Assembly: GCF_007992835.1 (NCBI RefSeq)
Contig: NZ_BKBA01000003.1
Coordinates: 868,001-932,000 of the forward strand
Direction of reading: 5' to 3'
Length of the DNA: 64,000 nucleotides
DNA from: Knoellia locipacati
Lineage (GTDB): Bacteria > Actinomycetota > Actinomycetes > Actinomycetales > Dermatophilaceae
Shown: in pieces, positions 145 to 63,646 of the stretch
Layout: every line of letters begins with the position of its first letter
Position numbering within the stretch: position 1 is the stretch's first letter
Translations under genes and position numbers: made by a program
The notes under the pieces: model-generated
Told to the model about the DNA's origin: nothing
Database searches by the model: none
What the model saw: the letters and a program-made list of their open reading frames with translations, nothing else

Positions 145-2063
145 CGGGTCTCCTCGGACGTCAGGGTGTGGCTGGTGGTGAGGTCGGCGTTGCCGCCGAG
201 GTCCTCGAGGTCAGGCACGAGCGCCATCGCTCCGAAGACGTGGGCGCCCTCGTCGGCGCGGCCCACCGCCGCCCGCAGGGGCGCGAACAGCTCGCGCCCG
301 GTGCCGGGCTCGTCCCTCGTGACGCGCGGCGCCGAGGGCCTGGCGGCGAGCTCGTCGGCGTCGACGAGCAGGTCGAGCCGCCCGGTGACCGAGTCGAGGC
401 GGATGACGTCACCGTCGCGCACCTTGGCGATCGGGCCGGCGTGCACGGACTCCGGGGTGACGTGGATCGCCGCCGGGATGGCCCCCGAAGCGCCGCTCAT
501 GCGCCCGTCGGTGACGAGCGCCACGGCATACCCGCGCTTCTGGAGGACACCGAGCGAGGGAGTGAGGGCGTGCAGCTCGGGCATGCCGTTCGCGCTCGGG
601 CCCTGCTCGCGGATGACGATGACGACGTCGCGGTCGAGCTCGCGCCGCGAGAAGGCCTGGAGGAAGCCGACCTGGTCGGTGAAGACGCGCGCCGGCGCCT
701 CGATGACGCGGTGCTCGTCGGCCACGGCGGACACCTTGATGACCGCGTGCCCGAGCGACCCGCGGAGCACCCGCAGCCCGCCGTCGACGGCGAACGGGTC
801 GTCGGCGCCGCGCAGCACGGTGGGGTCACCGGACGTGGGCCCGACGTCGACGAACTCGAGCCGGCCGTCGACGAGGACGGGACGCTGGGTGTAGTGACGC
901 AGCCCCTCGCCGGCCAGGGTGAGGACGTCGTCGTGGAGCAGACCCGCGTCGAGGAGCGTCGCCACGGTGTATGCCGTGCCTCCGGCCGCGTGGAAGTGGT
1001 TCACGTCCGCGGTGCCGTTGGGATACATCCGGGCGATCGACGGGACGACCGCCGAGAGCTCGTCGAAGTCGTCCCAGGTGAGGTCGATCCCCGCCGCGGC
1101 CGCCATCGAGATGAGGTGCATCGTGTGGTTGGTCGAGCCGCCGGTCGCGAGCAGGGCGACGACTCCGTTGAGCACCGACCTCTCCGAGACGACCTGACCG
1201 ATGCCGTAGGGCGAGTCGGACGCGGCGATCTCGGCGACGCGCGCGGTGGCGGCGGTGGTGAGCGCGTCACGCAGCGGGTCGTCGGGGTGGACGAAGGCGG
1301 CGCCCGGCAGGTGCAGGCCCATGACGTCCATGAGGAGCTGGTTGGAGTTCGCGGTGCCGTAGAACGTGCACGTGCCGGGCGAGTGGTACGACGCGACCTC
1401 GCTGCCGAGCAGCTCGTCGCGGCCCACGTCACCGGCGGCGAAGGCGCGGCGCGTCTCGGCCTTGTCGGCGTTGGACCGGCCCGACGCCATCGGCCCGGCG
1501 GGCACCAGGGCCATCGGCAGGTGGCCGAAGGCGAGGGCGCCGGCGACGAGCCCGGGCACGATCTTGTCGCAGACGCCGAGCAGCAGGACGCCGTCGAACA
1601 CGTCGTGCGAGAGGGCGATGGCCGTCGACATCGCGATGACGTCGCGGCTGAACAGGCTGAGCTCCATGCCGGCCCGGCCCTGGGTGATGCCGTCGCACAT
1701 GGCGGGCACCCCGCCGGCGACGCGGGCGACGGCACCGAGGTCGCGCGCGGTCTGCTTGATCCGCTCGGGGTAGTGCTCGAAGGGCGCGTGGGCCGAGAGC
1801 ATGTCGTTGTAGGACGTGACGACGCCGAGGCTGACCCCGGTCGTCGCGGACATCACCGCCCGGTCGCTGCCACCACAGGCCGCGACGGCGTGGGCGAGGT
1901 TCGAGCAGCCGAGGTCGGTGCGGGCGGGGCGAAGGCTGAGCTCGGACGCGGCCCGGGCCGTGCGCTGCAGGTATGCCGTGCGGCTGGCGCGGCTGCGCTC
2001 GGTCACGCGGGCGGTGACCTGGGACAGGACAGGGTTGATGGCAGGACGGATGACGGGCGCCAT
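141..2063 (-). CDS. edd: 6-phosphogluconate dehydratase (Edd)
   Basis: A 640-residue member of the IlvD/Edd dehydratase family that would convert 6-phosphogluconate to KDPG, the first Entner-Doudoroff step, using a [4Fe-4S] cluster. Visible family motifs are [38 protein letters not shown] and [19 protein letters not shown], with the cluster cysteines in the last two, then [32 protein letters not shown] and [21 protein letters not shown] near the N terminus is typical of Edd rather than IlvD. The reading frame is open 19 codons further upstream, but the ATG at 2063 is chosen because AGGAGA lies 6 bases before it and the next residues align with known Edd starts. Coupled to eda. A CRP-type palindrome lies 60 bp upstream. 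Confidence 0.93.
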
Positions 2064-2124
2064 GGGTCTCCTGGAAGGTGACGATGAGGACGGATGGCGC
2101 GAACGGCGTCGCTGACGCACGCGT

Positions 2125-2140
2125 TGTGATCCAGGTCACA
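2125..2140. promoter_or_regulatory. CRP/GlxR-type operator upstream of edd-eda
   Basis: TGTGATCCAGGTCACA is a perfect TGTGA-N6-TCACA palindrome, the consensus for CRP-family regulators (CRP, GlxR, Cmr). It sits between the divergent-facing ends of edd (start at 2063) and an upstream gene on the same strand ending at 2216, about 60 bp before the edd start codon. This position suits direct control of the edd promoter by cAMP or a related signal. No CRP-family gene is in the window. Binding is inferred from the sequence only. Confidence 0.6.
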
Positions 2141-2215
2141 AGTGTGGCGAGGACGGCCCGCGGCGCAACGACCGTCCCGCCATCCGGACAGCCGGCACCA
2201 CTCGCATGCTCGCGG

Positions 2216-3493: not shown

Positions 3494-3534
3494 GGACCCG
3501 AACGTATGCCGTCCCGCCGACACCCCTCGCCGGC

Positions 3535-4081: not shown

Positions 4082-4921
4082 TCAGGAGTGCTGGCAGCCC
4101 GGGCACCAGAAGAGGCGCTGCAGACCCATCCGCTCGGCCCTGACGGTCGTCCCGCACACGGGGCACGGCTTCCCGGCACGGCCGTAGACGGCATACCGCT
4201 TGGGCCAACGGGGGACCCGCTCGCCGCGGACGAGCACCTCGCGGGCGGCCGCCATCTGGGCCTCGTCGGTGACGATCCAGCCGGCGCCGAGGCCGAGCGT
4301 CATGAGGTCGACGGCGTCCTGCCACAGGGCCGCGAAGGTGTCGTCGTCGATGTCATGGCCGGGAGTGAACGGGTCGAGCCTGGCGCGGTGCAGGAGCTCG
4401 GCGCGATAGACGTTGCCGATGCCGGCGATGACTTTCTGGTCGATGAGGAGCGCGCCGATCGGTCTGCGAGAGTTCTGGATCCGTCGCCTGGCGAGGTCGG
4501 GATCGGCGTCGTCGCGCAGCGGGTCGGGGCCGAGCCGTGCCCGCAGGGCGAGCACGCCGTCCTCGTCGAGCAGCTCACAGACGGCCGGGTCGGTGACCTC
4601 GGCGTGGTGGGTCGCCGACAGCAGCCGCCACGCGACGTTGCCGTGGATCGGCGGCTCGGTGCGGGGGTATGCCCCGGCGAGGGCACGCGCGTGCCGGCGG
4701 ACCGAGACGGCGCCATCCATGGCGAGGTGGAGGTGGACGGTGAGGGGGACGTCGACGGCGGACACGAGCAGGTGCTTGCCGACGGCCTGGGCGTCGGCGA
4801 CGACCCGCTCGTCGAAGAGCGCGGCGTCGAGGGCGCCGTTGGGAGAGCTCGAGCGCACCGGCTGGCCTGCGAGTTGTCGCAGCCGCCCGGCCATGCCGTG
4901 GACCGCGTGACCCTCGGCCAC
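4082..4921 (-). CDS. Fpg/Nei-family DNA glycosylase lacking Pro2
   Basis: 279 residues, a length normal for endonuclease VIII-type base-excision glycosylases. It has the N-terminal catalytic segment, a central helix-2-turn-helix region (SRRPIGALLIDQKVIAGIGN, YRAELLHRARLDPFTPG) and a C-terminal zinc finger with four cysteines (CPVCG...CPGCQ). The GTG at 4921 is the only usable start because an in-frame TGA lies two codons upstream. The mature N terminus is therefore Ala-Glu-Gly-His, not the Pro-Glu-Gly found in this family, whose Pro2 amine is the Schiff-base nucleophile. Glu3 and the lysine in VGKHLLV are kept. The protein may be inactive, altered in chemistry, or a binding protein. It overlaps the stop region of the TUDOR gene upstream, suggesting an operon. 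Confidence 0.85.
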   Translation of the reverse strand: MAEGHAVHGMAGRLRQLAGQPVRSSSPNGALDAALFDERVVADAQAVGKHLLVSAVDVPLTVHLHLAMDGAVSVRRHARALAGAYPRTEPPIHGNVAWRLLSATHHAEVTDPAVCELLDEDGVLALRARLGPDPLRDDADPDLARRRIQNSRRPIGALLIDQKVIAGIGNVYRAELLHRARLDPFTPGHDIDDDTFAALWQDAVDLMTLGLGAGWIVTDEAQMAAAREVLVRGERVPRWPKRYAVYGRAGKPCPVCGTTVRAERMGLQRLFWCPGCQHS

Positions 4922-4924
4922 CGG

Positions 4925-5184: not shown

Positions 5185-5520
5185 TCAGGCCGAGCGGGGT
5201 GCGTACATGATCACGGCGACCCCGGCGAGGCACAGCAGCGCACCCGTGACGTCGTAGCGATCGGGCCGGAAGCCGTCGAGCGCCATCCCCCACGCCAGTG
5301 AGCCCGCGACGAAGACCCCTCCGTATGCCGCAAGGATCCGTCCGAAGTGCGCGTCCGGTTGCAGCGTGGCGACGAAGCCGTAGAGACCGAGCGCGATGAC
5401 GCCGGCGCCGATCCAGACCCAGCCGCGGTGCTCGCGCACGCCCTGCCAGACGAGCCATGCACCACCGATCTCGGCGATGGCGGCGGCGACGAACAGGAGC
5501 ATCGACCTCAGGGTGTCCAC
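5185..5520 (-). CDS. YnfA/UPF0060 small membrane protein
   Basis: 111 residues forming four predicted membrane helices, with the family hallmarks [33 protein letters not shown] and [20 protein letters not shown]0060 proteins are small multidrug-resistance-like inner membrane proteins of uncertain substrate. The GTG at 5520 is preferred because family members have about six residues before the LLF motif. An ATG at 5502 with a GAGG Shine-Dalgarno 4 bases upstream is a real alternative (105 residues). A CGGCATAC word codes for Ala-Tyr inside the gene. Confidence 0.85.
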
Positions 5521-5574: not shown

Positions 5575-6045
5575 TCAGCGGCGGAGGAAGCCGATCCAGC
5601 CGGCGTTCGTGTCGAGGCTGAACATCGGGCCCTGCGTCGAACCCTTGAGCTGCACCTGCGCCCGGTCGGCGACGAGGGCCATGAGCCAGGCCTCGGTGGC
5701 CGCCACGTCGGGCGGGCAGCCGATCTCCGTCGTCACCACGCCCTGCTCGGACCGCAGCCGGTGGTCCTCGACGGTGACGGTGGCGCTCATCCGGTTGCAC
5801 CCCACGTCGAAGCGGAGCTCGTCGCCGTCGACGGTCACCGTGACGGGTCTCGTCCACGGGGTGCTCCCGTCGTAGGTGAACCCGGTGCGCGAGACCCAGA
5901 CCCCCTGCACCTCGTCCAGCGAGTGAAGCCAGCCCGCGCTCCGGTCCGCGGCACGCTCCTGGGCGAGCCGGACGGCATACAGGGAGCCGCCTGCCACGAG
6001 CGCGACGACCACCGCGAGCGCGAGCCACCTCCACGGGCTTCTCAT
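5575..6045 (-). CDS. Membrane-anchored META-domain protein (HslJ-like)
   Basis: 156 residues. An N-terminal signal anchor (LALAVVVALVAGGSLYAV) is followed by an extracytoplasmic META/DUF306 domain, recognised by LRFDVGCNRMSATVTVEDHR and GVVTTEIGCPPDVAATEAWL. These carry the paired cysteines and the GCN core typical of HslJ-like domains. Such domains occur in secreted or periplasmic stress proteins. The ATG at 6045 gives the hydrophobic anchor directly. There is no lipobox. It has the same orientation as the hypothetical gene upstream, 40 bp away. Confidence 0.75.
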   Translation of the reverse strand: MRSPWRWLALAVVVALVAGGSLYAVRLAQERAADRSAGWLHSLDEVQGVWVSRTGFTYDGSTPWTRPVTVTVDGDELRFDVGCNRMSATVTVEDHRLRSEQGVVTTEIGCPPDVAATEAWLMALVADRAQVQLKGSTQGPMFSLDTNAGWIGFLRR

Positions 6046-6692: not shown

Positions 6693-7136
6693 ATGCCAGG
6701 TCGTCGAGAGCCCGAGGGCGCGGTCGGCCACAGCTTCGGGCTGGAGCTAGACGGCGTCCGCGTCGCGATGCTCACCGAGGTCACCGGACTGACCGTCGAG
6801 CGCGACGTCATCGAGCTGCGCGAGGGTGGCGCCGACGGAACGCAGGTCGTGCGGCAGCTGCCCGGGCGCCTCAAGCCCGGCGAGGTCACGGTGAGCCGCG
6901 GCCTGACGGTCGACCAGGCCTTCGAGCAGTGGATGAACGACGTGACGAACGACGTCGCCGCCGCCCGCAGGAACGCGGCGGTCCTCGTCCTCGACCGCCG
7001 GGGTCAACGCGTCGCGACCTTCACCCTCAGCCGCGCATGGCCGAGGAAGCTCGAGTATGCCGGTCTGCGCGCTGGCGCTGGCGAGCCGCTGACCGAGCGC
7101 CTCACCCTCGTCCACGAGGGCATCGCGCGCACCTGA
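6693..7136 (+). CDS. Phage-tail/eCIS tube protein homologue (gp19/TIGR02241)
   Basis: 147 residues matching the inner-tube protein family of contractile injection systems (Afp1/Pvc1, TIGR02241). Visible are the N-terminal GHSFGLELDGVRVAMLTEV, VTGLTVERDVIELREGG, the LPGRLKPGEVTVSRGLT strand pair, LVLDRRGQRVATFTLSRAWP and the closing LTLVHEGI. In known systems this protein stacks as hexamers to form the tube. The ATG at 6693 follows GGGAGG with a 5-base spacer. No sheath, baseplate, spike, AAA ATPase or terminase gene is adjacent, so it is an orphan. Codon use matches the neighbours, so recent phage origin is not evident. Confidence 0.8.
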   Translation: MPGRREPEGAVGHSFGLELDGVRVAMLTEVTGLTVERDVIELREGGADGTQVVRQLPGRLKPGEVTVSRGLTVDQAFEQWMNDVTNDVAAARRNAAVLVLDRRGQRVATFTLSRAWPRKLEYAGLRAGAGEPLTERLTLVHEGIART

Positions 7137-8005: not shown

Positions 8006-8605
8006 ATGGGCGAGGAGACGGCATACGAGGTCGTGCCGCTCAGCGCGCAGACGTGGCCGGCCTTCGACGCGATGGTGGTGCGGCACAACGGGATCTTCGG
8101 TGGGTGCTGGTGCATCTGGTTCCACCCCGACGGGCCCGAGCGAGGTCAGGGCGCCGAGGCCAACCGCGCGCTCAAGAAGTCGTACGTCGAGCAGGGCAAG
8201 GCGCACGCGGCCTTGGTCATGAACGGTGACGAGGCGATCGCGTGGGCGGAGTACGGCACACCGGACGAGCTGCCGACGCTGCACCACCGCAAGGAGTACG
8301 ACGCGACGTCGACGGTCGAGCCGGACTACCGGATCACGTGCGTCTTCGTCGACAAGCGCCACCGGCGCCAGGGCGTCACCGAGCTGGCGATCACCGGCGC
8401 CCTCGACCTCATCGCGCAGGCCGGCGGCGGGCGGGTCGAGAGCTATCCGCACGACCTCACCGAGCGGACGAAGAAGATGTCGTCGTCGTTCCTCTACAAC
8501 GGCACCCGGCGGCTCTACGAGCGGCTCGGCTTCACCTACGACCGGCCCAAGGGGCTCAAGAACTGCGTCATGGTCACGACCGTGGCGCCCGCGATCCGGG
8601 GCTAG
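8006..8605 (+). CDS. GNAT-family N-acetyltransferase
   Basis: 199 residues. The acetyl-CoA-binding part is seen in ITCVFVDKRHRRQGVTELAI, containing the V-x-x-x-x-R-x-x-G motif A of GNAT enzymes, followed by a C-terminal strand-helix (FLYNGTRRLYERLGFTYDRP). A cysteine/tryptophan-rich N-terminal loop (FGGCWCIWFHPDG) is characteristic of one uncharacterised GNAT subgroup. The substrate is unknown. The ATG at 8006, 8 bp after the preceding stop, suggests one transcription unit with the pterin-dehydratase fusion. Transcription likely ends at the hairpin just downstream. Confidence 0.83.
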   Translation: MGEETAYEVVPLSAQTWPAFDAMVVRHNGIFGGCWCIWFHPDGPERGQGAEANRALKKSYVEQGKAHAALVMNGDEAIAWAEYGTPDELPTLHHRKEYDATSTVEPDYRITCVFVDKRHRRQGVTELAITGALDLIAQAGGGRVESYPHDLTERTKKMSSSFLYNGTRRLYERLGFTYDRPKGLKNCVMVTTVAPAIRG

Positions 8606-9403: not shown

Positions 9404-9742
9404 TCAGACCGACGCAGGGGTTACGAGGAGCTGCCTGACCAAGGAGACCCCGACGCCGATCCCGAGGAGCGCGCCCGCGAGGAAGACCGGCACACCGAAC
9501 ACGTAGCTACCGGGCAGCCCCACCACGAGCCACACGCCCGCGCAGACGACCAGCCGCAGCCGGGTCCACGGCGGTCGGGCCAGAAGGGGCGACAGCAGCA
9601 CGACGGCTGCGATCGCGAGGTTGAGCCACGTGTCGTTGCGAGCCGGATGAAGGTATGCCGTGACGAGAGTTCCGGCGGCCGCTCCCAGCAGGGCGGCCCA
9701 CCCGGACAGGACCCACGACCGCGACCTCAGCTCGGTCATCAT
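9404..9742 (-). CDS. Small integral membrane protein
   Basis: 112 residues with about four predicted helices (VLSGWAALLGAAAGTLVTAY, WLNLAIAAVVLLSPLLA, LVVCAGVWLVVGLPGSYVFG, VFLAGALLGIGVGVSLV). No motif was recognised. Two adjacent ATGs (9742 and 9739) are possible starts. The gene begins 7 bp after the dnaB stop, so it is probably co-transcribed with dnaB, but nothing in the sequence links it to replication. Confidence 0.6.
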   Translation of the reverse strand: MMTELRSRSWVLSGWAALLGAAAGTLVTAYLHPARNDTWLNLAIAAVVLLSPLLARPPWTRLRLVVCAGVWLVVGLPGSYVFGVPVFLAGALLGIGVGVSLVRQLLVTPASV

Positions 9743-12370: not shown

Positions 12371-12646
12371 TCAGCCCGCCCGGCCGTACCTCTCCGCGGA
12401 CCGCGCCCGCGCCTTGGCGGCCTCGACCTCACGGTCCTTGGGCGGCGCGGCTGTGACGAGGTGGTCGAGCAGGTGCTGGGTCGCGTCCGCGACCTCGCGC
12501 ACCGCCGCGTCGAACGCCTCCTGGTTCGCCTGCGACGGCTTGGTCGACCCACTCACCTTGCGCACGTACTGGAGCGCGGCGGCATACACCTCGGAGTCCG
12601 TGGCGGGAGGCTCGAAGTTGTGCAGCTGACGGATGTTTCGGCACAT
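12371..12646 (-). CDS. DUF2277 family protein
   Basis: 91 residues with the full family pattern: MCRNIRQLHNFEPPATDSEV at the start, ALQYVRKVSG, a helical middle and KDREVEAAKARARSAERYG at the end. DUF2277 proteins are small, cytoplasmic and widespread in Actinobacteria. Their function is unknown. It is convergent with the thioesterase gene, with only 13 bp between stops. Confidence 0.85.
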   Translation of the reverse strand: MCRNIRQLHNFEPPATDSEVYAAALQYVRKVSGSTKPSQANQEAFDAAVREVADATQHLLDHLVTAAPPKDREVEAAKARARSAERYGRAG

Positions 12647-12716
12647 GCCTGTCAATGTATGCCGCCCGCTCGCCTCCCGACACCCCTCTCGTGCCGTCGT
12701 GGCTAGGGTCGTGGGC

Positions 12717-38560: not shown

Positions 38561-38697
38561 CCGACGCCGCGCGGGACGGCCGACGGCAGGTTTCGCGTGC
38601 TCGGCGTCCCCTTTCCTGGCGTATGCCGTCCGCTCCCCTCGTCGTCCTCCCCGCGCGACCCGGACCCCCTGAGGTCTGATCTCGCGAGGAGAGAGTC

Positions 38698-42121: not shown

Positions 42122-42179
42122 ACGACGCGCGTATGCCGTGAGCTCCCGCAGGGGGGAGCACACGGCATACGTGCGTCGT
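42122..42179. terminator. Long hairpin built from an inverted GTATGCCG pair
   Basis: A 26-position stem (42122-42147 against 42154-42179) with one G-T pair and one A/A mismatch and a 6-base loop. Its two arms contain GTATGCCG (42131) and CGGCATAC (42163) facing each other. It lies 24 bp after the nrdB stop, so it most likely terminates nrdAB. A third word copy lies at 42206. The rest of the gap to 42330 holds a GGAGG ribosome site and no other feature that I recognise. Confidence 0.85.
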
Positions 42180-42330
42180 GGAGGCCTGCCGTGGACCGGC
42201 GTCACCGGCATACAGGGTGAACCGTCATAATTGACGGCAACCAGGGATGTTGTCCCGGGGAGGTTGTTGCGACGACTGACCTCAAGTCAACCCCCATACC
42301 CACAGGCCCACTGCGCGGATGGAGGCACTC

Positions 42331-49140: not shown

Positions 49141-49159
49141 CCCCCACTCACCTGCGACT

Positions 49160-49225: not shown

Positions 49226-49235
49226 GGTCGAACGG

Positions 49236-53748: not shown

Positions 53749-54664
53749 CGTCGTCACCTCTGTCGTCGCTGAAGGGAAGTCTGGGGTCCACCGGCTCGTC
53801 CGTCCACCCCTCACGCACCCACGCGTGGGAGGTGTCGTCGCAGATGAGCCAGGCACGCTCGGCGCCCGGACCGGCCATGACGTTGAGGTAGTAGAGGTCG
53901 GCGTCGGGAGCCGCCATCGCCGGTCCGTGCCAGCCGTGCGGGACGAGGACGACATCGCCGGTGCGCACCTCGGCGAGGACGTCGATCGGTCGGTCGTCGG
54001 TGCCGTAGACGCGCTGGTAGCCCACCGGGTCCGTGCCGCGGGAGTCGGTCGAGCGGGTCTCGAAGTAGTAGATCTCCTCGAGCTCGGACTCCACACCCGG
54101 CCGGTCCTCGTCGTGCTTGTGCGGGGGCCACGAGCTCCAGTTGCCGGCGGGCGTGATGACCTCGCAGACGAGGATCGCGTCGGCGTCGAGGACGGGAGGC
54201 AGCCCGAACGCGCGCACCTCGCGGCTTGCCCGCCCGGCACCGCGCAGCTCAGGCTGAGCGTCCTCCGCGGCGATCCGTCGGGGCTCGCGGTCGGTGCTCG
54301 CGCGGGCACCGCAGAGGGCCACGCGTGATCCGGTTCCGCTGTCGCGCAGCGTGATCGTGCGCTGCCGCGGCAGGTATGCCGTGTCGCTCGGTCCGTCGAA
54401 CACGCTCGCCCGCCCGTCGAGCCGGATGGGTTCCGAGCCCGAGACCTCGATCGTCACCGACCCCTGCAGGGGCACGACGACGAGCTCCTCGTCCCCGGTG
54501 TCGTGGGTGAGCGAGCCTCCGGCGTCGAGGTGGGCGACGCGCAGCGAGGTGTGCTGCCACCCGTCGACGGCGTCGGTGACGGTCACGGCGAACGCCCCGT
54601 CCGACGCCTCACCGAACGGGAGCACCCAGCGTCCGTTGTCGGCGCCGCGCCCGGACGGGCTCAC
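53741..54664 (-). CDS. iolB: 5-deoxy-glucuronate isomerase (IolB)
   Basis: 307 residues, bicupin. The second cupin has the metal motif WPPHKHDEDR and a matching ELEEIYYFET, followed by VLVPHGWHGPAMAAPDADLY, all hallmarks of IolB. It isomerises 5-deoxy-glucuronate to 2-deoxy-5-keto-gluconate. GTG start at 54664 overlapping the aldolase-gene stop (GTGA). Confidence 0.93.
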   Translation of the reverse strand: MSPSGRGADNGRWVLPFGEASDGAFAVTVTDAVDGWQHTSLRVAHLDAGGSLTHDTGDEELVVVPLQGSVTIEVSGSEPIRLDGRASVFDGPSDTAYLPRQRTITLRDSGTGSRVALCGARASTDREPRRIAAEDAQPELRGAGRASREVRAFGLPPVLDADAILVCEVITPAGNWSSWPPHKHDEDRPGVESELEEIYYFETRSTDSRGTDPVGYQRVYGTDDRPIDVLAEVRTGDVVLVPHGWHGPAMAAPDADLYYLNVMAGPGAERAWLICDDTSHAWVREGWTDEPVDPRLPFSDDRGDDDE

Positions 54665-55542
54665 GAGCCACCCCCGTGTACCAGGCCGGAGGCGATGTCG
54701 ACGGCGGCGGCCACGTCACCGTCGGGGGGATAGAGCAGCGCGCGTCCGACGACGAGCCCCGAGACCGACGGGAGCCGCAGCGCGTCGGACCACGCGGCAT
54801 ACGTGTCCTGCGCATCACCCTGGGGGTCCCCGCCGAGCAGCAGGGTCGGCAGGGTCGTGGCGTCCATGACCCGCTCGAGGTCGTCGACGACCGGGAGCTT
54901 GAGCCAGGTGTGGGCGCTGCTCGCACCGAGCCCGCTGGCGACGGCGATGGAGGCGATGGTCGAGTCGGGGTCGAGAAGGTTGCGGACGCGGCCGTCCTCG
55001 ACGACCGAGAGGAAGGGCTCGACCATCGCCATGAGCCCGTGGGTCGCGAGGTCGGTCACCGCGTGGGCGCTGGCCTCGATCGTGGCCAGGCTGCCGGGGT
55101 CGGACAGGCAGATCCGGGTGAGCATCTTGCCGCCGTCGATCCCGCGCGCGGCGAGCTCGGCGGCGGTGTAGGCCGTGAAGCGATCGTCGAGCTCGAACGC
55201 CGCGCCCTGGAGCCCGCCGCGGTTCATCGAGCCGATGGCGACCTTGTCGTCGAGGGCGCCGAGGAGCAGCAGGTCGTCGAGGACGTCGGGTGTGCCGAGC
55301 ACGCCGTCGACGCCGGGTCGGCGGAGCGCCGTGACGAGCCGGTCGAGCAGGTCGCTGCGACTGGCCATCGCGGTCGGGTTGCCCCTGACGCCGAGCGCCC
55401 CGCGGGCGGGGTGGTCGGCGGCCACGAGCAGCATCCGGCCGTCGTCGGCGACGAGCGGGCGGCGCCGACGCTCGGCCCAGAGCCTGGCGATCCGGCCGGG
55501 CTCGGTCGCCCGGATGCGGGTGATCTCGGCGAGGTCGCTCAC
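54661..55542 (-). CDS. Cgl0158-type (beta/alpha)8 aldolase of inositol operons
   Basis: 293 residues. The N terminus has RMLLVAADHPARGALGVRG, the Asp/His start of the DhnA-like class I aldolase barrel. IGSMNRGGLQGAAFELDDRF, GGKMLTRICLSDPGSLATIE (with a candidate Schiff-base lysine) and LPTLLLGGDPQGDAQDTYAA follow. In inositol operons this protein sits where IolJ is expected and is thought to act as the 2-deoxy-5-keto-gluconate 6-phosphate aldolase, giving DHAP and malonate semialdehyde. GTG start at 55542, overlapping iolC (GTGA). Confidence 0.8.
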   Translation of the reverse strand: MSDLAEITRIRATEPGRIARLWAERRRRPLVADDGRMLLVAADHPARGALGVRGNPTAMASRSDLLDRLVTALRRPGVDGVLGTPDVLDDLLLLGALDDKVAIGSMNRGGLQGAAFELDDRFTAYTAAELAARGIDGGKMLTRICLSDPGSLATIEASAHAVTDLATHGLMAMVEPFLSVVEDGRVRNLLDPDSTIASIAVASGLGASSAHTWLKLPVVDDLERVMDATTLPTLLLGGDPQGDAQDTYAAWSDALRLPSVSGLVVGRALLYPPDGDVAAAVDIASGLVHGGGS

Positions 55543-56504
55543 GGCCGCACCGCCGCACTGAGCGCGTCGTCGACCTCGGCGGTCGTGGGCATGGCCGTCG
55601 AGCACTCGAGCCGGCCGGCGACGATCGCACCGGCGACGTTGGCGAACTCGAGGACGCGCCGAAGGTCCCACCCGGAGAGCAGCCCGTGGACGAACGCCCC
55701 ACCGAAGGCGTCACCGGCACCGAGGCCGTTGACGACCTCGACGGGGAACGGCGCGACCTCGACCCGCTCGTCCCGGGTGGCGGCGAGCACCCCGCGCGGT
55801 CCTTGCTTGACGACGGCGACCTCGAGCCCGCGGTCGAGCAGGGCGTCGGCGGCGCGGTTCGGGTCGGTCTCGCCGACGGCGACCTCACACTCCTCGCGGT
55901 TGCCGATGGCGATCGTCATGTGCTCGAGCGCGCGGCCGACCTGCGCGCTCGCCTCGGCCGGGTCGGCCCAGAACATCGGGCGGTAGTCGAGGTCGAGCAC
56001 CGTGTGGCGGGCGCGGGCCCGGTGTCCCCACGCCGCGAAGTGCGTTGCGCGAGAGGGCTCCTGCGAGAGACCGGTGACGGTCGACCAGAACACGGAGGCC
56101 TCCCGGATGGCGTCGACCGGCAGGTCGTCCTCGGTGAGGAGCAGGTCCGGCGCGGTGGGATAGCGGTAGAACCAGAGCGGGAAGTCGTCGGGTGGGAAGA
56201 CCTCGCAGAACGTCACCGGCGTGGGAGGCCCCTCGCCCTCGACCGCGCTGATGTGGACGGGGTCGACCCCCAGCCGCTCGGCCTCGAGCCGCACGTAGCG
56301 CCCGAACGGGTCCTGCCCGACCTTGGTGACGAGGCTGACCCGCCGCCCGTGCCTGGCCGCGGCCACGGCGACGTTGGTGGCGCTCCCCCCGAGGAACTTC
56401 TGGAAGGTGCTCACCTCCTCGAGCCCGACGCCGTGCTGGAGCGGGTAGATGTCGACGCCCGTCCGGCCCATGGCCACGAGGTCGTATGCCGTGCGCTCAC
56501 CCAT
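55539..56504 (-). CDS. iolC: 5-dehydro-2-deoxygluconokinase (IolC)
   Basis: 321 residues, PfkB-type sugar kinase. LVAMGRTGVDIYPLQHGVGL and FLGGSATNVAVAAARHGRRV (substrate region), the DPFGRYVRLEAERLGVD segment and the C-terminal catalytic motif VVNGLGAGDAFGGAFVHGLL with the base Asp. It phosphorylates 2-deoxy-5-keto-gluconate. The ATG at 56504 lies in the end of iolE (8-bp overlap). Confidence 0.92.
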   Translation of the reverse strand: MGERTAYDLVAMGRTGVDIYPLQHGVGLEEVSTFQKFLGGSATNVAVAAARHGRRVSLVTKVGQDPFGRYVRLEAERLGVDPVHISAVEGEGPPTPVTFCEVFPPDDFPLWFYRYPTAPDLLLTEDDLPVDAIREASVFWSTVTGLSQEPSRATHFAAWGHRARARHTVLDLDYRPMFWADPAEASAQVGRALEHMTIAIGNREECEVAVGETDPNRAADALLDRGLEVAVVKQGPRGVLAATRDERVEVAPFPVEVVNGLGAGDAFGGAFVHGLLSGWDLRRVLEFANVAGAIVAGRLECSTAMPTTAEVDDALSAAVRP

Positions 56505-57420
56505 CGCTTCGTCCTCCCAGCCGCTCCGCGAGCGCGGTGATGTGGGCGATCGAGGCGCGCACGTCCGCGAGCGGGTCCACCCCGGTCTGCGACGGCGACC
56601 CCGTGAGGATGGTGTCCTGCTCGAGGACGTACCACCCGGCATACCCGGCGTCCTCGAGCGAGCCGACGATGGCGGCGATGTCGACGTCGCCCTCGCCTAG
56701 CGGGACGTACATCCCCGCGCTCACGCCGTCGGTGTAGCTGAGCTCGCCCGACTGCACCCTGGAGGCGAGGTCGAGGCGGACGTCCTTGAGGTGGACGTGG
56801 CCGATCCGGTCGGGGTGGCTGCGGGCGATCGCGACCGGGTCGCCACCGCCGATGAGGAGGTGTCCGGTGTCGAGGCAGAGGCCGATGCGCGACCCCGCGA
56901 GGACCCGCTCGGCCTCGGCGCCCGACTCGACCATCGTGCCGACGTGCGGGTGGACGGTGGCGGTGAGCCCGCGGGCCTCGGCGGCTGCGGTCACGAGGTC
57001 GAGGTTCGCGAGCATCGTGTCCCACTGCTCGTCGTCGAGCTCGGGCCGCGCGTCGTAGCCCTCGACCCCGGTGGCGGCGGCCACGACGACGGTGGTCGCC
57101 CCGGCGACGGTGAGGGCCTCCATCGCGCTCTCGACCTCGGGCAGCGGGTCGTGGCCCGCGTCGTGGAGGACGACCGGGACGAACTGGCCGACCGCGCTCA
57201 GCCCGGCGGCGGCGAGGGCGTCCGCCTTGGCGACCGGCTCGTCGGGCAGGAAGCCGTCGGGCCCGAACTCCGTGGCCACGATCCCGACCTCGCGCATCTC
57301 GCGCAGCACGGTGTCGACGTCGAGCTGGAAGCCCCAGCCGGGGACCTCGCAGACACCCCACGAGATCGGGGCGCCGGCGATGCGCTCGGCCAGCGGCGGA
57401 CGGGTGGTCGTGGTGCTCAT
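56497..57420 (-). CDS. iolE: Inosose dehydratase (IolE)
   Basis: 307 residues, xylose-isomerase-like barrel. IAGAPISWGVCEVPGWGFQL at the start is the classic IolE N terminus. Metal ligands lie in GLTATVHPHVGTMVES, GLCLDTGHLLIGGGDPVAI and GHVHLKDVRLDLA. It dehydrates scyllo-inosose to the trihydroxycyclohexane-dione precursor. The ATG at 57420 gives this N terminus. It overlaps the stop of the upstream dehydrogenase gene by 4 bp. Confidence 0.93.
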   Translation of the reverse strand: MSTTTTRPPLAERIAGAPISWGVCEVPGWGFQLDVDTVLREMREVGIVATEFGPDGFLPDEPVAKADALAAAGLSAVGQFVPVVLHDAGHDPLPEVESAMEALTVAGATTVVVAAATGVEGYDARPELDDEQWDTMLANLDLVTAAAEARGLTATVHPHVGTMVESGAEAERVLAGSRIGLCLDTGHLLIGGGDPVAIARSHPDRIGHVHLKDVRLDLASRVQSGELSYTDGVSAGMYVPLGEGDVDIAAIVGSLEDAGYAGWYVLEQDTILTGSPSQTGVDPLADVRASIAHITALAERLGGRSDG

Positions 57421-58445
57421 GCTGTGGCCTTCGTTCGGGCGGGTGCATCGGGGATCTCGGACATGGCGACGGGGCGGCGCTGGGCGCGGGAGAGCTCGCA
57501 GGCCTCGGCGGTGCGGAACGCCTGGAGCGCGTCCCGGACGGTGCACGGGCTGGGGGTACGGCCCGCGGCGACGTCGCAGAACGCCGTGAGCTCGGCACGG
57601 TAGGCGCCGAGGAAGCGCTGCATGAACGACCGGTGCGCGGGCCCGGCCGGGAAGGTCACGCCCTCCTCCGCCGAGCGCAGCGCGAGCGAGTCGTCGAGCC
57701 CGACGGCGATGCTGCCGTCGGAGCCCATGACCTCGAGGCGGACGTCGTGCCCGCCGCCGCTGTAGCGGGTCGCCGTCGCGGTGACGAGCGTGCCGTCGTC
57801 GAGGGTGAGCACCGCCGCGGCGGTGTCGACGTCGCCCGCGGCACCGAAGAACTCGGCGCCCTTGTTCTCGCCGGTCGCATAGACGGTGGCGACCTCGTGA
57901 CCGGTGACGTAGCGGACGATGTCGAAGTCGTGCACCGAGCAGTCGCGGAAGATGCCGCCGCTCGTCGGGATGTAGGCCGCGTGCGGCGGCTCCTGGTCGT
58001 GGGTCAGCGCACGCAGGGCGTGGATCGTCCCCAGCTCGCCGGACTCGACGGCCGCCCTGGCCCGCCGGTATCCGGTGTCGAAGCGGCGCTGGAACCCGAT
58101 GTGCACGGGGACCTCGCTCGCCTCGCTCAGCTCGGTGAGGGCGATGGTCTCGTCGAGCGTGGCGGCGACCGGCTTCTCGCAGAACGTGGGTATGCCGGCC
58201 GCGAGCGCCTGTCGGAGCAGCGCGGCGTGCGCTGTCGTCGCCGTCGTGATGACGAACGCGTCGAGGCCCGAGCCCAGGAGCGTGTCGATGTCGGGGGCGT
58301 GCTGGAGGCCCTGCTCGGTGGCGACCCGCTCCGCGAGGGCCGCGTCGAGGTCGGCGACGACCACCTCGTCGACGGCGTCGAGCCCCGTGAGGGTGCTTGC
58401 GTGGAAGGCGCCGATACGGCCCACACCGGCCAGTCCGATCCTCAT
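57417..58445 (-). CDS. iolG: Gfo/Idh/MocA inositol dehydrogenase-like (copy 2), operon head
   Basis: 342 residues. Rossmann motif GLAGVGRIGAFHASTLTG, CEKPVA with catalytic Lys near residue 94, HIGFQRRFDTGYRRARAAV and GGIFRDCSVHDFDIVRYVTG with the D/H catalytic pair. Together with the downstream paralogue it suggests use of more than one inositol isomer (for example myo and scyllo or D-chiro), but which copy does which is not visible. It is the first gene of the minus-strand operon, divergent from the GntR gene. An ATA codon occurs within a GTATGCCG word at 58190. Confidence 0.88.
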   Translation of the reverse strand: MRIGLAGVGRIGAFHASTLTGLDAVDEVVVADLDAALAERVATEQGLQHAPDIDTLLGSGLDAFVITTATTAHAALLRQALAAGIPTFCEKPVAATLDETIALTELSEASEVPVHIGFQRRFDTGYRRARAAVESGELGTIHALRALTHDQEPPHAAYIPTSGGIFRDCSVHDFDIVRYVTGHEVATVYATGENKGAEFFGAAGDVDTAAAVLTLDDGTLVTATATRYSGGGHDVRLEVMGSDGSIAVGLDDSLALRSAEEGVTFPAGPAHRSFMQRFLGAYRAELTAFCDVAAGRTPSPCTVRDALQAFRTAEACELSRAQRRPVAMSEIPDAPARTKATA

Positions 58446-58534: not shown

Positions 58535-59275
58535 ATGGCAGCCCAGCTCGTGGACGTGAGCATCGACCGGACGTCACCGGTCCCGCTCTACCACCAGCTG
58601 TCCGAGCAGCTGTGCGCTGCCATCACCGACGGACGCCTCCAGCCCGGCGACCCCTTCGAGAACGAAGTGGCTCTGGCACAACGGCTCTCGCTCTCGCGCC
58701 CGACCGTGCGCCGGGCCATCCAGGAGATGGTCGACAAGGGCCTGCTCGTCCGGCGCCGGGGCCTCGGCACGACGGTCGCCAACCGCAAGGTGCACCGCCG
58801 GGTCGCCCTGAGCAGCCTCTTCGACGACCTCTCGCGTGAGGGTCGCGCCCCACGCACCGTGCTCCTCGAGCACGACACCGTCGCCGATGCCGATGCAGCC
58901 GCGGCCCTCGACCTCCCGTCCGACACCCCACTGCTCGCCATCGTCCGCCTCCGGTTCGCGGGCGACGCGCCACTGGCGGTCATGCGGAACTGGCTGCCGC
59001 CGGCATACGGGGACATCTCACGCGACGAGCTCGAGGCGACCGGTCTGTATGCCGCCCTGCGCGCCCGTGGCGTGCACGCGGTCGTGGCGCACCAGTCGAT
59101 CGCGGCCCGGATGCCGACGGCGGCCGAGCGCCGTCACCTGCGGATCCGGGGCACCCAACCGGTGCTGACGATGACGCGGATGGCGTTCGACGGGTCCGGG
59201 GGCGCCGTGGAGTACGGCGACCACAGCTATCGCGCCGAGGACTACACGATCGACCTCATGGTCGACGAGCGCTGA
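58535..59275 (+). CDS. GntR-family (HutC-type) regulator of the iol operon
   Basis: 246 residues. The N-terminal winged helix shows PLYHQLSEQLCAAITDGRLQ, PGDPFENEVALAQRLSLSRP, TVRRAIQEMVDKGLLVRRRG. The C-terminal UTRA domain (VLLEHDTVADADAAAALDLP to EYGDHSYRAEDYTIDL) would bind an inositol metabolite. Divergence from the catabolic operon indicates it is the local repressor (IolR-like role). ATG at 58535. Confidence 0.9.
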   Translation: MAAQLVDVSIDRTSPVPLYHQLSEQLCAAITDGRLQPGDPFENEVALAQRLSLSRPTVRRAIQEMVDKGLLVRRRGLGTTVANRKVHRRVALSSLFDDLSREGRAPRTVLLEHDTVADADAAAALDLPSDTPLLAIVRLRFAGDAPLAVMRNWLPPAYGDISRDELEATGLYAALRARGVHAVVAHQSIAARMPTAAERRHLRIRGTQPVLTMTRMAFDGSGGAVEYGDHSYRAEDYTIDLMVDER

Positions 59276-60121: not shown

Positions 60122-60619
60122 TCAGGACCAGCCCGGCGGCGGGGGCGGTGGTGGCGGCGTGCCCTGGCCGGGGGCCGGCGGCATGCTCTGCGGCGGCAGG
60201 CCTTGGGACGGCGCGCTCGGCGGGGCTGACGCGGGCGGCGGGGGTGGCGGTGCCTGTTCGGGCTGACCGGGCGGGGGCGGTGGGGGTGCCGACTGGCTCG
60301 ACGGCATACCCGGAGCACCTGGAGCCCCGCCCATCCCCGGCGGCGGAGGCGGTGTCGTGCGCAGCGCGAACGACGAGAAACCACCCTGCTGCTCGGCCTC
60401 GCGGAGCCCGGCCATGACACGGTCCCGCTCACCCTCCGGCGCGGCGCGACCGGTGGCGTCGAGGTAGGCGAGGACCCCGAGGTCCCGCAGCAGGCGGTCC
60501 GTGGCGGCCGAGGTGCCCGACGTCGAGCCGGGGGTGTTGATCCCGGCCTGCGCCATCGCTCCGTCGGCTTTCGCGGCGAGGTCGTTCGCTGCGGCCTTGG
60601 CCTTGTCGAGGAATCCCAT
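60122..60619 (-). CDS. Proline-rich tailed small protein
   Basis: 165 residues. The N-terminal part is a helical, Ala/Lys-rich segment (MGFLDKAKAAANDLAAKADG) followed by a compact charged region with LLRDLGVLAYLDATGRAAPE. The last 65 residues are Pro/Gly/Ala-rich with poly-proline runs (SAPPPPPPGQPEQAPPPPPP). ATG at 60619 with AGGAGG upstream. Divergent from the AIM24 gene, with which it may share a promoter. Function unknown. The pattern resembles actinobacterial envelope- or membrane-associated proteins with disordered tails. Confidence 0.75.
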   Translation of the reverse strand: MGFLDKAKAAANDLAAKADGAMAQAGINTPGSTSGTSAATDRLLRDLGVLAYLDATGRAAPEGERDRVMAGLREAEQQGGFSSFALRTTPPPPPGMGGAPGAPGMPSSQSAPPPPPPGQPEQAPPPPPPASAPPSAPSQGLPPQSMPPAPGQGTPPPPPPPPGWS

Positions 60620-61475: not shown

Positions 61476-61525
61476 CGGACAGGCTGCACGGCCGGGACCA
61501 GCATCACCTGCGGCAGACTTCCCCC

Positions 61526-62056
61526 ATGCACGAGCTGCACGAACCGATGGACGCCGCCACGCTGCGGGCTCTTCAAGCACCCCTCAAGGAGCTCTACCGC
61601 GAGGACCCGGACGAAGCGGTCGTGCACCTCACCGCCCGCGCGGACTGGCGCGACCCAGGCATCACGACGAGCGTCGACGTCTGGTCCGGCCGCACCCGCG
61701 CCGGACTCCACCCGTCGACCGGTGGTGACGGCGACGACGCCTGCTCGGGAGACATGCTCCTCGAGGCGGTCCTCGCCTGCGCCGGGGTGACGATGCGGTC
61801 GGTCGCCACGGCCATGAAGCTCACCATCCGGCGCGCCAACCTGCGGGCCGACGGCGAGTTCGACGCCCGCGGCACCCTCGGGGTCGACCGCGAGGCACCG
61901 GTCGGGCTCACCGGGATGAGCATCACCGCCACCCTCGAGACCGACGCCGACGACGAGGCGCTCGCCCGGCTCGCCAGCGCCACCGAGCGCTACTGCGTCG
62001 TGGGCCAGAGCCTGGCGGTCCCCCCGACGATCAGGATCCGTCGCGCCGGCAGCTGA
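61526..62056 (+). CDS. OsmC-family protein
   Basis: 176 residues. The OsmC/Ohr fold is indicated by HPSTGGDGDDACSGDMLLEA, VLACAGVTMRSVATAMKLTI and the C-terminal ATERYCVVGQSL with the second conserved cysteine. These cysteines form the peroxidatic pair in Ohr/OsmC peroxidases. An extra cysteine is present (DACSGD). It would reduce organic hydroperoxides in the cytoplasm, though some family members have other roles. ATG at 61526. Confidence 0.85.
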   Translation: MHELHEPMDAATLRALQAPLKELYREDPDEAVVHLTARADWRDPGITTSVDVWSGRTRAGLHPSTGGDGDDACSGDMLLEAVLACAGVTMRSVATAMKLTIRRANLRADGEFDARGTLGVDREAPVGLTGMSITATLETDADDEALARLASATERYCVVGQSLAVPPTIRIRRAGS

Positions 62057-62137
62057 TCTCGCCAGCCGGGAGCACCGCCCGCGGGCTCACAGCGGGCATG
62101 TCGGGAGTACCCAGCCAACCCTCGTACCCTTGAGCGT

Positions 62138-63646
62138 GTGAGCGAGACCCCCACCAGCACCGTCACCGCCCCCGAGCTCGACCTCTCGGAGCAGCAGCGC
62201 ATCCGCCGCGAGAAGCGCGCCCGACTGCTCGAGTCGGGGACGGCGGCATACCCCGTCTCGGTCGACCGCACCCACGCGCTCATCGACGTGCGTGAGGAGT
62301 GGGGCCACCTCGAGACCGGGGAGGAGACCGACGACGTCGTCTCCGTCGCCGGCCGCGTCGTCTTCGTCCGCAACACCGGCAAGCTCGCCTTCGCCACCCT
62401 CCAGGAGGGCGAGGGCGTCCGGCTCCAGGTCATGCTCAGCCTCGCCGAGGTGGGCGAGGAGTCGCTCGCCGACTGGAAGTCCCACGTCGACCTCGGCGAC
62501 CACGTCTCCGTCACCGGCCGCGTCATCAGCAGCCGGCGCGGCGAGCTGTCGGTCATGGCGACGAGCTGGACGATGGCGTCGAAGGCGCTGCGTCCCATGC
62601 CGACCCTGCACAAGGAGCTCTCCGAGGAGAGCCGGGTGCGCCAGCGCTACGCCGACCTCATCGTGCGCCAGGAGGCGCGCGACATGGTCCGGACCAAGGC
62701 CCGCATCCTCAGCGCCATGCGTCACGAGCTCGAGGACCAGGGCTACCTCGAGGTCGAGACCCCGATCCTCCAGCTCATCCACGGCGGCGCCGCGGCCCGG
62801 CCGTTCCGGACCCACCTCAACGCGTTCGACCAGGAGATGACCCTGCGGATCGCGCTCGAGCTCAACCTCAAGAAGGCCGTCGTCGGTGGTGTCGACCGCG
62901 TCTACGAGATGGGGCGCATCTTCCGCAACGAGGGCGTCGACGCGACCCACTCACCCGAGTTCACGATGCTCGAGGCCTACCAGGCGTGGGGCGACCAGAG
63001 CACCATCGCCGACCTCATCAAGGACCTCTACCTCGCCGCCGCCGACGCGTTCGGGTCGCGCCAGGTCGAGACCGACAAGGGCACGATCGACCTCGACGGC
63101 GAGTGGCGCTGGCTGCCCGTCCACGAGGCCGTGAGCGTGGCCGTCGGCGAGACGGTCACCATCGACACGGAGCTTGCGACCCTGCGCGGCCTCGCCGCGA
63201 AGCACGACGTCGAGTTAGCGCCCGAGTGGGACCGCGACAAGGTCTTCCTCGAGCTGCTCGGCGAGCTCGTCGAGCCGACCCTGCTCCAGCCGACGTTCCT
63301 CTGCGACTACCCCGCGAGCGCCCAGCCGCTGGCCCGCCCGCACCGCAGCGAGCCCGGCCTCATCGAGGCGTGGGACCTCATCATCGGCGGTGTCGAGCGC
63401 GGCACCGGGTTCTCCGAGCTCATCGACCCCGAGATCCAGCGGGCCGTCCTCACCGAGCAGTCGCGCAAGGCGGCTGGCGGCGACCCCGAGGCGATGCAGC
63501 TCGACGAGGACTTCCTGCGAGCGCTCGAGTACGGCGCGCCGCCCATGGGTGGCCTCGGGCTCGGTGTCGACCGCCTCGTCATGCTTTTCACCGGCGCCAA
63601 CATTCGCGAGACGATCCTTTTCCCCCACCTCAAGCCGGAGGCCTGA
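62138..63646 (+). CDS. lysS: Lysyl-tRNA synthetase (class II)
   Basis: 502 residues. The anticodon-binding OB-fold has VSVAGRVVFVRNTGKLAFAT and HVSVTGRVISSRRGELSVMA. The class II motifs are YLEVETPILQLIHGGAAARP (motif 1), YEMGRIFRNEGVDATHSPEF (motif 2) and GVDRLVMLFTGANIRETILF (motif 3). It charges tRNA-Lys. GTG start at 62138, preceded by TTGAGC. Followed by a small membrane gene and lsr2, a conserved actinobacterial order. A short inverted repeat (GCCCGC/GCGGGC at 62077-62097) lies before it. Confidence 0.95.
   Translation: MSETPTSTVTAPELDLSEQQRIRREKRARLLESGTAAYPVSVDRTHALIDVREEWGHLETGEETDDVVSVAGRVVFVRNTGKLAFATLQEGEGVRLQVMLSLAEVGEESLADWKSHVDLGDHVSVTGRVISSRRGELSVMATSWTMASKALRPMPTLHKELSEESRVRQRYADLIVRQEARDMVRTKARILSAMRHELEDQGYLEVETPILQLIHGGAAARPFRTHLNAFDQEMTLRIALELNLKKAVVGGVDRVYEMGRIFRNEGVDATHSPEFTMLEAYQAWGDQSTIADLIKDLYLAAADAFGSRQVETDKGTIDLDGEWRWLPVHEAVSVAVGETVTIDTELATLRGLAAKHDVELAPEWDRDKVFLELLGELVEPTLLQPTFLCDYPASAQPLARPHRSEPGLIEAWDLIIGGVERGTGFSELIDPEIQRAVLTEQSRKAAGGDPEAMQLDEDFLRALEYGAPPMGGLGLGVDRLVMLFTGANIRETILFPHLKPEA

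What the first reader, a model, noticed from the sequence alone, without database searches (positions are those of the whole stretch)
524..62251. Genome-scale DNA word GTATGCCG at uptake-sequence density on both strands
I count about 52 exact copies of GTATGCCG or its complement in 64 kb, where base composition at about 71% GC predicts roughly 2. There are 26 copies in each orientation, so the word is not polar like Chi or KOPS. The density, about one per 1.2 kb, is close to that of the DNA uptake sequences known in Haemophilus and Neisseria. The preferred 9th base is T and never A. I know of no such word described in Actinobacteria. It could mark self-DNA for uptake, organise the chromosome, or be a methylation or nucleoid-protein target.
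Basis: partly seen in the sequence, partly recalled or inferred. Interest (0 to 1): 0.85.

Follow-up and report, generated by a model that had tools for sequence, protein, structure and literature searches.

The report
Self-DNA word in Knoellia and kin
A short DNA word is repeated thousands of times in these soil bacteria, evenly spaced on each strand and with spelling variants in related genera, which looks like the self-recognition tags that some bacteria use when they take up DNA, not known to us in this phylum.

Summary
In detail: 52 exact GTATGCCG in the window, 26 per strand, 0.95 expected. It is genome-wide: 2535 copies in 3.59 Mb against 99 for the reversed word. The genome is probably a Knoellia. 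Codon use does not explain it (127 Tyr-Ala copies against 5.2 expected; 113 Ala-Tyr against 3.4). 108 of 186 family genomes carry it; some related genera carry one-base variants instead or as well (GGATGCCG, GTATGCGG, GAATGCCG), like Neisseria uptake-sequence dialects. Sites are kept 67-90% in six relatives against 35-48% for matched 8-mers.

A new feature: like-oriented copies avoid each other below about 1.5 kb, opposite ones do not (<500 bp: 28 same, 156 opposite, 123 expected of each), unlike 79 other equally common 8-mers, as if the word were read on single strands.

Best explanation: a transformation (DNA-uptake) word maintained by biased import or recombination; comEA-comEC and Tad pilus genes are present, but also in wordless relatives. 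Main rival: a Chi-like site, weakened by absence of RecC and of replication polarity. No uptake experiment exists; the receptor is unknown.

The parts
524..531 (-). GTATGCCG
969..976 (+). GTATGCCG
1971..1978 (+). GTATGCCG
3504..3511 (+). GTATGCCG
4189..4196 (-). GTATGCCG
5323..5330 (+). GTATGCCG
5973..5980 (-). GTATGCCG
7055..7062 (+). GTATGCCG
8019..8026 (-). GTATGCCG
9653..9660 (+). GTATGCCG
12580..12587 (-). GTATGCCG
12657..12664 (+). GTATGCCG
13885..13892 (-). GTATGCCG
14684..14691 (+). GTATGCCG
15088..15095 (-). GTATGCCG
17362..17369 (-). GTATGCCG
20762..20769 (+). GTATGCCG
21521..21528 (+). GTATGCCG
21913..21920 (-). GTATGCCG
23842..23849 (+). GTATGCCG
24409..24416 (+). GTATGCCG
26519..26526 (-). 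GTATGCCG
27033..27040 (+). GTATGCCG
28190..28197 (-). GTATGCCG
31329..31336 (+). GTATGCCG
31776..31783 (-). GTATGCCG
34289..34296 (+). GTATGCCG
36339..36346 (+). GTATGCCG
37083..37090 (-). GTATGCCG
38427..38434 (-). GTATGCCG
38621..38628 (+). GTATGCCG
40391..40398 (-). GTATGCCG
42131..42138 (+). GTATGCCG
42163..42170 (-). GTATGCCG
42206..42213 (-). GTATGCCG
43761..43768 (+). GTATGCCG
44483..44490 (-). GTATGCCG
45735..45742 (-). GTATGCCG
50854..50861 (-). GTATGCCG
50933..50940 (+). GTATGCCG
52144..52151 (+). GTATGCCG
52564..52571 (+). GTATGCCG
53307..53314 (-). GTATGCCG
54374..54381 (+). GTATGCCG
54795..54802 (-). GTATGCCG
56484..56491 (+). GTATGCCG
56637..56644 (-). GTATGCCG
58190..58197 (+). 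GTATGCCG
59001..59008 (-). GTATGCCG
59047..59054 (+). GTATGCCG
60302..60309 (-). GTATGCCG
62244..62251 (-). GTATGCCG

Best explanation
GTATGCCG (extended form in Knoellia: A-rich stretch, then [C/G]GTATGCCGT) is a self-recognition word for natural transformation. DNA that carries it is preferentially imported or preferentially recombined, so the word spreads and is kept at thousands of sites by biased conversion, as for the DUS of Neisseria and the USS of Haemophilus. SHOWN: genome-wide excess, strand balance, codon independence, conserved sites, one-base dialects in sister genera, intergenic excess, presence of comEA-comEC and Tad (Flp) pilus genes of the kind needed for transformation in Micrococcus luteus, and quasi-regular spacing within each orientation without exclusion between orientations. 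INFERRED: that the word acts in transformation; and, from the lack of exclusion between opposite orientations, that it is read strand-specifically, most simply on the single strand during or after ComEC import, one word per strand per about 1-1.5 kb being enough. The protein that reads it is unknown; candidates (guesses) are the TadE/TadF-like minor pilins, ComEA, ComEC or a cytosolic ssDNA handler such as DprA.
For: excess: 351 in 444 kb against 7.4 order-2, 14.6 order-3; codon control; 1.61 per kb intergenic, 0.70 coding; site conservation; dialects; G039 GGATGCCG 1977/1972 against 140/149 for the reversed word, G030 1966/1850 against 224/168, G033 GTATGCGG 591/613 against 54/53; 108 of 186 genomes, 31 of 53 genera; even spacing, oriented lattices, control 8-mers; ComEC in 44 of 44; TadE in 35 of 36 family genomes, TadA over the cut-off in 35 of 36; the exception in both is wordless G020, though one search finds a 145-residue TadA-like piece there; ComEA and ComEC domains, TadA and TadE/Tad proteins of two clusters; tad-2 TadA in 12 of 12 word-bearing and 11 of 20 wordless genomes; Fisher p 0.012, not corrected for phylogeny. 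Literature: PMC4322843 (passages): comEC and genes of both tad clusters needed in M. luteus; PMC3630211 (passages): DUS dialects; PMC2397512 (abstract and passages): DUS spacing matches conversion-tract length, DUS conserved.
Against: No transformation of Knoellia was found in print (one paper holds both terms, listing only, on food resistance genes). ComEC and Tad are also in wordless genera, so machinery does not predict the word by itself; 11 of 20 wordless genomes have tad-2, and G004 carries the word although no tad-2 TadA was found in its 90-contig assembly. One-mismatch neighbours are on the whole not enriched and those at positions 6-8 are depleted, unlike the many near-copies reported for some DUS (PMC3630211). 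Depletion in DNA not aligned to relatives is only a trend and not monotonic (unaligned 4 words in 10.4 kb against 41 in 44.6 kb, p 0.09; but 11 in 6.3 kb where 1-2 of 5 relatives align and 5 in 13.0 kb where 3-4 align). No prophage was found to serve as a test. In Haemophilus, USS orientation is reported not to matter for uptake (PMC1939737, passages), so the oriented lattice is not a known DUS/USS property. In G021 the like-orientation exclusion is not seen (13 same, 12 opposite below 800 bp, 40 kb sample).
Confidence: 0.6

Rival explanations
1. Chi-like recombination site: a helicase-nuclease that chews a broken duplex end recognises the word on one strand and switches to recombination. Each orientation serves ends approached from one side, so the two orientations would form independent lattices.
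For: Oriented, strand-read recognition would give the like-orientation exclusion seen. Chi also varies by a base between species and is commoner in core DNA (PMC8022716, passages). Block-wise word strand excess correlates with GC skew (rho 0.43, p 0.005).
Against: Chi is read by RecC in RecBCD (PMC8022716); RecC is absent from all 9 Knoellia and from 26 of 36 family genomes: 3 of 21 word carriers and 7 of 15 others have it (Fisher p 0.06). Polarity is small: 340 of 656 copies on the G-rich strand of their block (p 0.37), 329 to 327 overall. Density is 453 per Mb at the median and up to 1356 per Mb against about one Chi per 5 kb in E. coli. An AddAB- or AdnAB-type enzyme was not searched.
Confidence: 0.2
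2. Site of a methyltransferase, restriction, BREX or nucleoid protein system, enriched as a binding lattice.
For: Short strict word, even spacing; a lattice could serve chromosome organisation.
Against: Restriction sites are usually avoided, not enriched 24-47 times (recalled); a protein lattice does not readily explain exclusion between like orientations only; the word changes by one base between genera.
Confidence: 0.08
3. By-product of codon, codon-pair or dipeptide bias.
For: Most coding copies lie in Tyr-Ala (127) or Ala-Tyr (113) frames of 296 coding copies; the dipeptides are slightly in excess (1.25 and 1.17).
Against: Expected numbers given the peptides and codon use are 5.2 and 3.4; intergenic density is higher, 1.61 per kb.
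Confidence: 0.02
4. A mobile or mutational generator (tiny insertion element, or a repair-driven word as suggested for HIP1, recalled).
For: HIP1-like words also reach high density (recalled).
Against: No long conserved flank; sites are old and kept at orthologous places; not palindromic; oriented lattice is not expected.
Confidence: 0.05

Closest known systems
DNA uptake sequence (DUS) of Neisseriaceae
   Same: Density of the same order, strand balance, conserved sites, one-base dialects by genus with occasionally two in one genome (here G026 GAATGCCG and GTATGCCG), even spacing.
   Different: Host is a monoderm actinobacterium with Tad pili and ComEA-ComEC, not type IV pili with ComP; core unrelated; like-orientation exclusion; one-mismatch neighbours not enriched.
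Uptake signal sequence (USS) of Pasteurellaceae
   Same: Strict core with weaker flanks (here A-rich upstream, C-rich downstream), fairly even spacing, similar count (1471 in H. influenzae per PMC1939737), excess in non-coding DNA.
   Different: USS orientation is reported not to matter for uptake (PMC1939737); here the orientations behave as separate systems.
Chi and Chi-like sites
   Same: Non-palindromic octamer, oriented reading, variants between species.
   Different: Not clearly polarised with replication, no RecC, several times denser than E. coli Chi.
HIP1 of cyanobacteria (recalled)
   Same: Hugely over-represented octamer of unclear role.
   Different: HIP1 is a palindrome; this word is not.

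Membership tests
DUS/USS uptake words | Short word in large genome-wide excess over base and Markov expectation | tested here: met
DUS/USS uptake words | Equal numbers on both strands | tested here: met
   (forward-reverse z sd 0.78, largest 2.3, over 108 genomes)
DUS/USS uptake words | Spacing more even than random | tested here: met
   gap CV 0.836 against 0.991 +- 0.053
DUS/USS uptake words | Conserved at orthologous sites | tested here: met
   67-90% kept against 35-48% for same-frame 8-mers and 51 of 130 for non-word Tyr-Ala/Ala-Tyr 8-mers (six genomes summed)
DUS/USS uptake words | Dialects differing by one base in related genera | tested here: met
DUS/USS uptake words | Rare in recently acquired DNA | tested here: inconclusive
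   0.38 against 0.92 per kb, p 0.09, not monotonic with the number of relatives aligned
DUS/USS uptake words | Competence machinery in the same genome | tested here: met
   but also present in wordless genera
DUS/USS uptake words | Word raises uptake or transformation in an assay | not testable with these tools
   needs bench work
DUS/USS uptake words | Specific receptor pilin | not tested
   candidates named only
Chi sites | Polarised with replication | tested here: not met
   329 to 327, and 340 of 656 on the G-rich strand; a block-wise correlation with GC skew exists. Origin and terminus were not located.
Chi sites | RecBCD reader (RecC) in the genome | tested here: not met
   no RecC in any of 9 Knoellia; 26 of 36 family genomes lack it
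Chi sites | AddAB or AdnAB reader | not tested
HIP1-like words | Palindromic octamer | tested here: not met
   sequence itself
Methylation or restriction site | Modified base at the word | not testable with these tools
   no long-read signal available

The most novel reading that the evidence does not exclude
An uptake-type word system outside the two proteobacterial families, in an actinobacterial family, with at least three one-base dialects besides the main word, and of a mechanistically new sort: the word is read on single strands, so each strand carries its own self-spacing lattice, meaning that self-recognition happens at or after strand separation and not on duplex DNA at a pilus tip.
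Probability: 0.4. Interest if true: 0.92.

Novelty: new variant of a known kind. Interest (0 to 1): 0.85.

Why it matters
Specific uptake words are known to us only from Neisseriaceae and Pasteurellaceae (recalled; the papers listed name none for Actinobacteria in title or start of abstract, and searches returned no paper). A further, independent origin in Gram-positive bacteria would allow tests of whether such words arise by drive alone, would point to frequent natural transformation in a large environmental lineage, and would give a rule for genetic tools (put the word on the donor DNA, on both strands). The oriented lattice makes the stage of recognition directly testable and can be looked for at once in Haemophilus and Neisseria.

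Tried and rejected
Codon and dipeptide bias: rejected. RecBCD-Chi: disfavoured. Polar word of the KOPS kind: rejected by strand balance. General hairpin/terminator role: close inverted pairs are few (24 opposite pairs below 50 bp among 656 words, about 12 expected). GTACGCCG in G036/G037 was considered a dialect but dropped: a similar modest excess occurs outside the family in named Nocardioides, Kribbella and other loci, and it shows no orientation exclusion in G036 (19 of 37 neighbours opposite). G029 GTATGCCGCT was dropped as a dialect because its nine sampled copies share a longer flank. GTATGTCG in G025 (21 against 1.8) is noted but not counted as a dialect. Prophage test: no portal protein PF04860 in 18 genomes, so no test. 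flank profiles were wrong for minus-strand copies (my indexing slip) and were redone; its pair counts do not use that index. The 'other genera' set counts about 5.5 kb of one genome twice (L103 and L126 overlap). G141 ComEC looked cut short; one search showed that the contig ends there. Search for the word in print: 643 papers hold the letters; the 20 listed are unrelated by title.
Full report
CHECK. The window holds 52 GTATGCCG, 26 on each strand; dinucleotide shuffles give 0.95. In 19 stretches of 20 kb from the same contig plus the window (444 kb) there are 351 copies against 7.4 (order 2) and 14.6 (order 3) expected; it is the top 8-mer under order 2 and second, after its own shift TATGCCGT, under order 3. 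The whole genome has 1266 + 1269 copies; the word read backwards has 49 + 50. Of 357 GTATGC in the 444 kb sample 351 lie in the word, and one-mismatch neighbours are on the whole not enriched (CTATGCCG 13 against 4.9 is the largest relative excess among those with more than a few copies).

ORGANISM. The window lies in G000, contig C3. A same-genus genome, G002, has its ComEC on a contig of 19,958 bases, which is the length of the named Knoellia remsis contig that was found with the ComEC alignment; so I take the genus to be Knoellia and the family to be that of Intrasporangium, Phycicoccus, Terrabacter and Dermacoccus (inference). Among 80 named loci around comEC, those with the word in excess include Knoellia remsis, Phycicoccus elongatus, Intrasporangium oryzae, Humibacillus xanthopallidus, Terrabacter sp. 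Root85 and Ornithinimicrobium cavernae; Intrasporangium flavum and Dermacoccus abyssi show no excess, nor do the Streptomyces, Nocardioides and Actinomadura loci.

NOT A CODON EFFECT. With my own simple gene calls over 464 kb, 296 of 367 copies are coding, 66 intergenic, 5 span a boundary; density is 0.70 per kb coding and 1.61 intergenic. Of the coding copies 127 lie in Tyr-Ala and 113 in Ala-Tyr frames. Given the peptides and the codon usage, 5.2 and 3.4 would be expected; 127 of all 233 TAT codons are inside the word.

DISTRIBUTION AND DIALECTS. With a cut of 100 per Mb and 2.4 times the reversed word (set by me after seeing the counts), 108 of 186 family genomes and 31 of 53 genera carry the word, 13 genomes are low, 65 have none; density in carriers is 102 to 1356 per Mb, median 453. 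None of 22 genomes of other families of the order passes that cut. Three genera have a single wordless member among carriers (G065, G118, G141). In samples of 10 to 100 kb of each other genome, one-base variants are in large excess over order-2 expectation in some genera: GGATGCCG in G039 (95 against 8.0) and G030 (62 against 5.9), GTATGCGG in G033 (31 against 1.3), GAATGCCG beside GTATGCCG in G026 (47 against 1.7, 21 against 1.1), and, weaker, GTATGTCG beside the main word in G025 (21 against 1.8). Whole genomes confirm two of the words: GTATGCGG in G033 591/613 against 54/53 (own genome 4/3 against 65/86); GGATGCCG in G039 1977/1972 against 140/149 and G030 1966/1850 against 224/168 (14 and 10 times the reversed word), with a weaker excess in G009, 674/662 against 150/160; this GC-rich word runs about 1.5 to 6.6 times its reverse in the other genomes, so the smaller excesses mean little. 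The ninth base differs by lineage too: T in Knoellia and G033, C in G034, G021 and G026, G in G039, no clear choice in G025. Several genera (G010, G020, G022, G023, G024, G027, G028, G041) showed neither the word nor a clear dialect in 20-60 kb.

CONSERVATION. In six other Knoellia (84-88% DNA identity over the aligned part of the window) the aligned sites keep the exact word in 32 of 38, 26 of 33, 24 of 36, 26 of 32, 27 of 30 and 9 of 10 cases; other 8-mers of the same AT number in the same codon frames are kept in 35-48%, and non-word Tyr-Ala/Ala-Tyr 8-mers in 51 of 130.

ORIENTED LATTICES. In 864 kb of the own genome (656 copies, 329 + and 327 -) the pair correlation of like-oriented copies is 0.08-0.37 below 800 bp, 0.5-0.7 up to 1500 bp and about 1 beyond; oppositely oriented copies scatter around 1, with an excess at short range: below 500 bp there are 28 like and 156 opposite pairs, 123 expected of each. 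Successive copies of one orientation lie 2474 bp apart on average with CV 0.596 (random 0.974 +- 0.036); gaps below 500 bp number 28 against 112 +- 12. The two halves of the sample agree (13 same and 87 opposite; 15 and 69). Among 80 non-palindromic 8-mers of similar number the word is the single outlier (same fraction 0.15, next 0.44; CV 0.60, next 0.84). Neighbours are opposite in 193 of 270 cases in other Knoellia (the stretches include orthologous ones, so not independent), 211 of 354 in other genera (5.5 kb counted twice) and 65 of 90 for GGATGCCG in G039; the smaller dialect sets (G026 34 of 57, G030 34 of 58, G033 17 of 27) lean the same way without significance and G036 GTACGCCG does not (19 of 37). 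Pairs below 800 bp, same and opposite: other Knoellia 32, 98; other genera 65, 108; G039 14, 33; G030 12, 21; G026 8, 15; G025 12, 17; but G021 13, 12.

MEANING OF THE LATTICES (inference). Exclusion between like copies means that a second copy within about 1 kb adds little. If a duplex fragment were captured by any one copy, opposite copies would be redundant as well. They are not, so + and - copies seem not to share a substrate; separated strands give this directly. An oriented end-processing enzyme (Chi-like) gives it too. The distance resembles the 1.5 kb at which Neisseria DUS spacing matches conversion fragments (PMC2397512). Whether USS or DUS show the same like-only exclusion I could not compute here.

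FLANKS. In 66 intergenic copies A is 0.29-0.35 at four of five places from -9 to -5 (background 0.14), T is 0.68 at +9 and C 0.77 at +15, a weak extended motif.

MACHINERY. ComEC is in 44 of 44 genomes examined. In G000, comEA lies directly before comEC; ComEA has SLBB and helix-hairpin-helix domains, ComEC its competence and metallo-lactamase domains; tad-1 (G000:C8) has TadA, a TadE just under the Pfam cut-off and a Tad (TadE/G-like) protein; tad-2 as seen in Knoellia G003 has TadA, two TadE (one under the cut-off) and a Tad protein. G000 itself shows only a partial tad-2 TadA, on C14. In M. luteus comEC and genes of both tad clusters are required for transformation (PMC4322843, passages). 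Of 36 family genomes only G020, wordless, lacks TadE and TadA over the cut-off, though a 145-residue TadA-like piece is found there. In 32 chosen genomes tad-2 TadA was found in 12 of 12 carriers and 11 of 20 wordless ones (list cut at the weak end; Fisher p 0.012, no correction for kinship). G004 is a carrier without a tad-2 TadA found. RecC occurs in 10 of 36 genomes: 3 of 21 carriers, 7 of 15 others, dialect G033 among these.

ASSESSMENT. A transformation word explains the density, balance, dialects, conservation and intergenic excess; for USS, even distribution is called an expected consequence of drive (PMC7811141, passages). The like-only exclusion is a property that I did not find described, and PMC1939737 (passages) reports that orientation does not affect USS uptake. 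I therefore propose a strand-read uptake or post-import word, with a Chi-like site as the chief rival.

PRINT. Of the papers listed (20 of 643; 20 of 32; 20 of 40; 20 of 28; 9 of 9; 8 of 31; 1 of 1; 8 of 10), none says in its title or the start of its abstract that such a word exists in Actinobacteria; two searches returned none. Only open-licence papers are held, so this is no proof of absence.

Noticed in passing
G010:C17:129291-130273: GTATGCGG recurs 17 times at 60-61 bp spacing on one strand, which looks like a CRISPR array with a repeat holding this octamer.
   Followed up: no
L085 (G011:C1:500001-520000): GTGCCACTC repeated 15 times in 20 kb, more often there than the word (13); probably a local repeat array.
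   Followed up: no
G065, G118, G141: Single wordless genomes inside genera whose other members carry the word: natural tests of loss or dialect switch. ComEA, ComEC and TadA matches are present in all three (ComEC of G141 is cut by a contig end); sequence for a new word could not be fetched.
   Followed up: partly
own genome: GTATGCGG, one base from the word, occurs only 7 times in 3.59 Mb against 151 for its reverse: near-words with GTATG seem avoided.
   Followed up: partly
41 blocks of the own genome: Word strand excess per block correlates with GC skew (rho 0.43, p 0.005), yet only 340 of 656 copies are on the G-rich strand (p 0.37).
   Followed up: partly
window 45743-50853: Longest gap without the word in the window (5.1 kb).
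   Followed up: no
L147, L155, L153, L168, L171 (named Kribbella, Nocardioides, Hamadaea loci): GTACGCCG, GTACGTCG or GCGTACGC-type words are several-fold enriched in other actinobacteria, possibly another word system or a Tyr codon effect.
   Followed up: no
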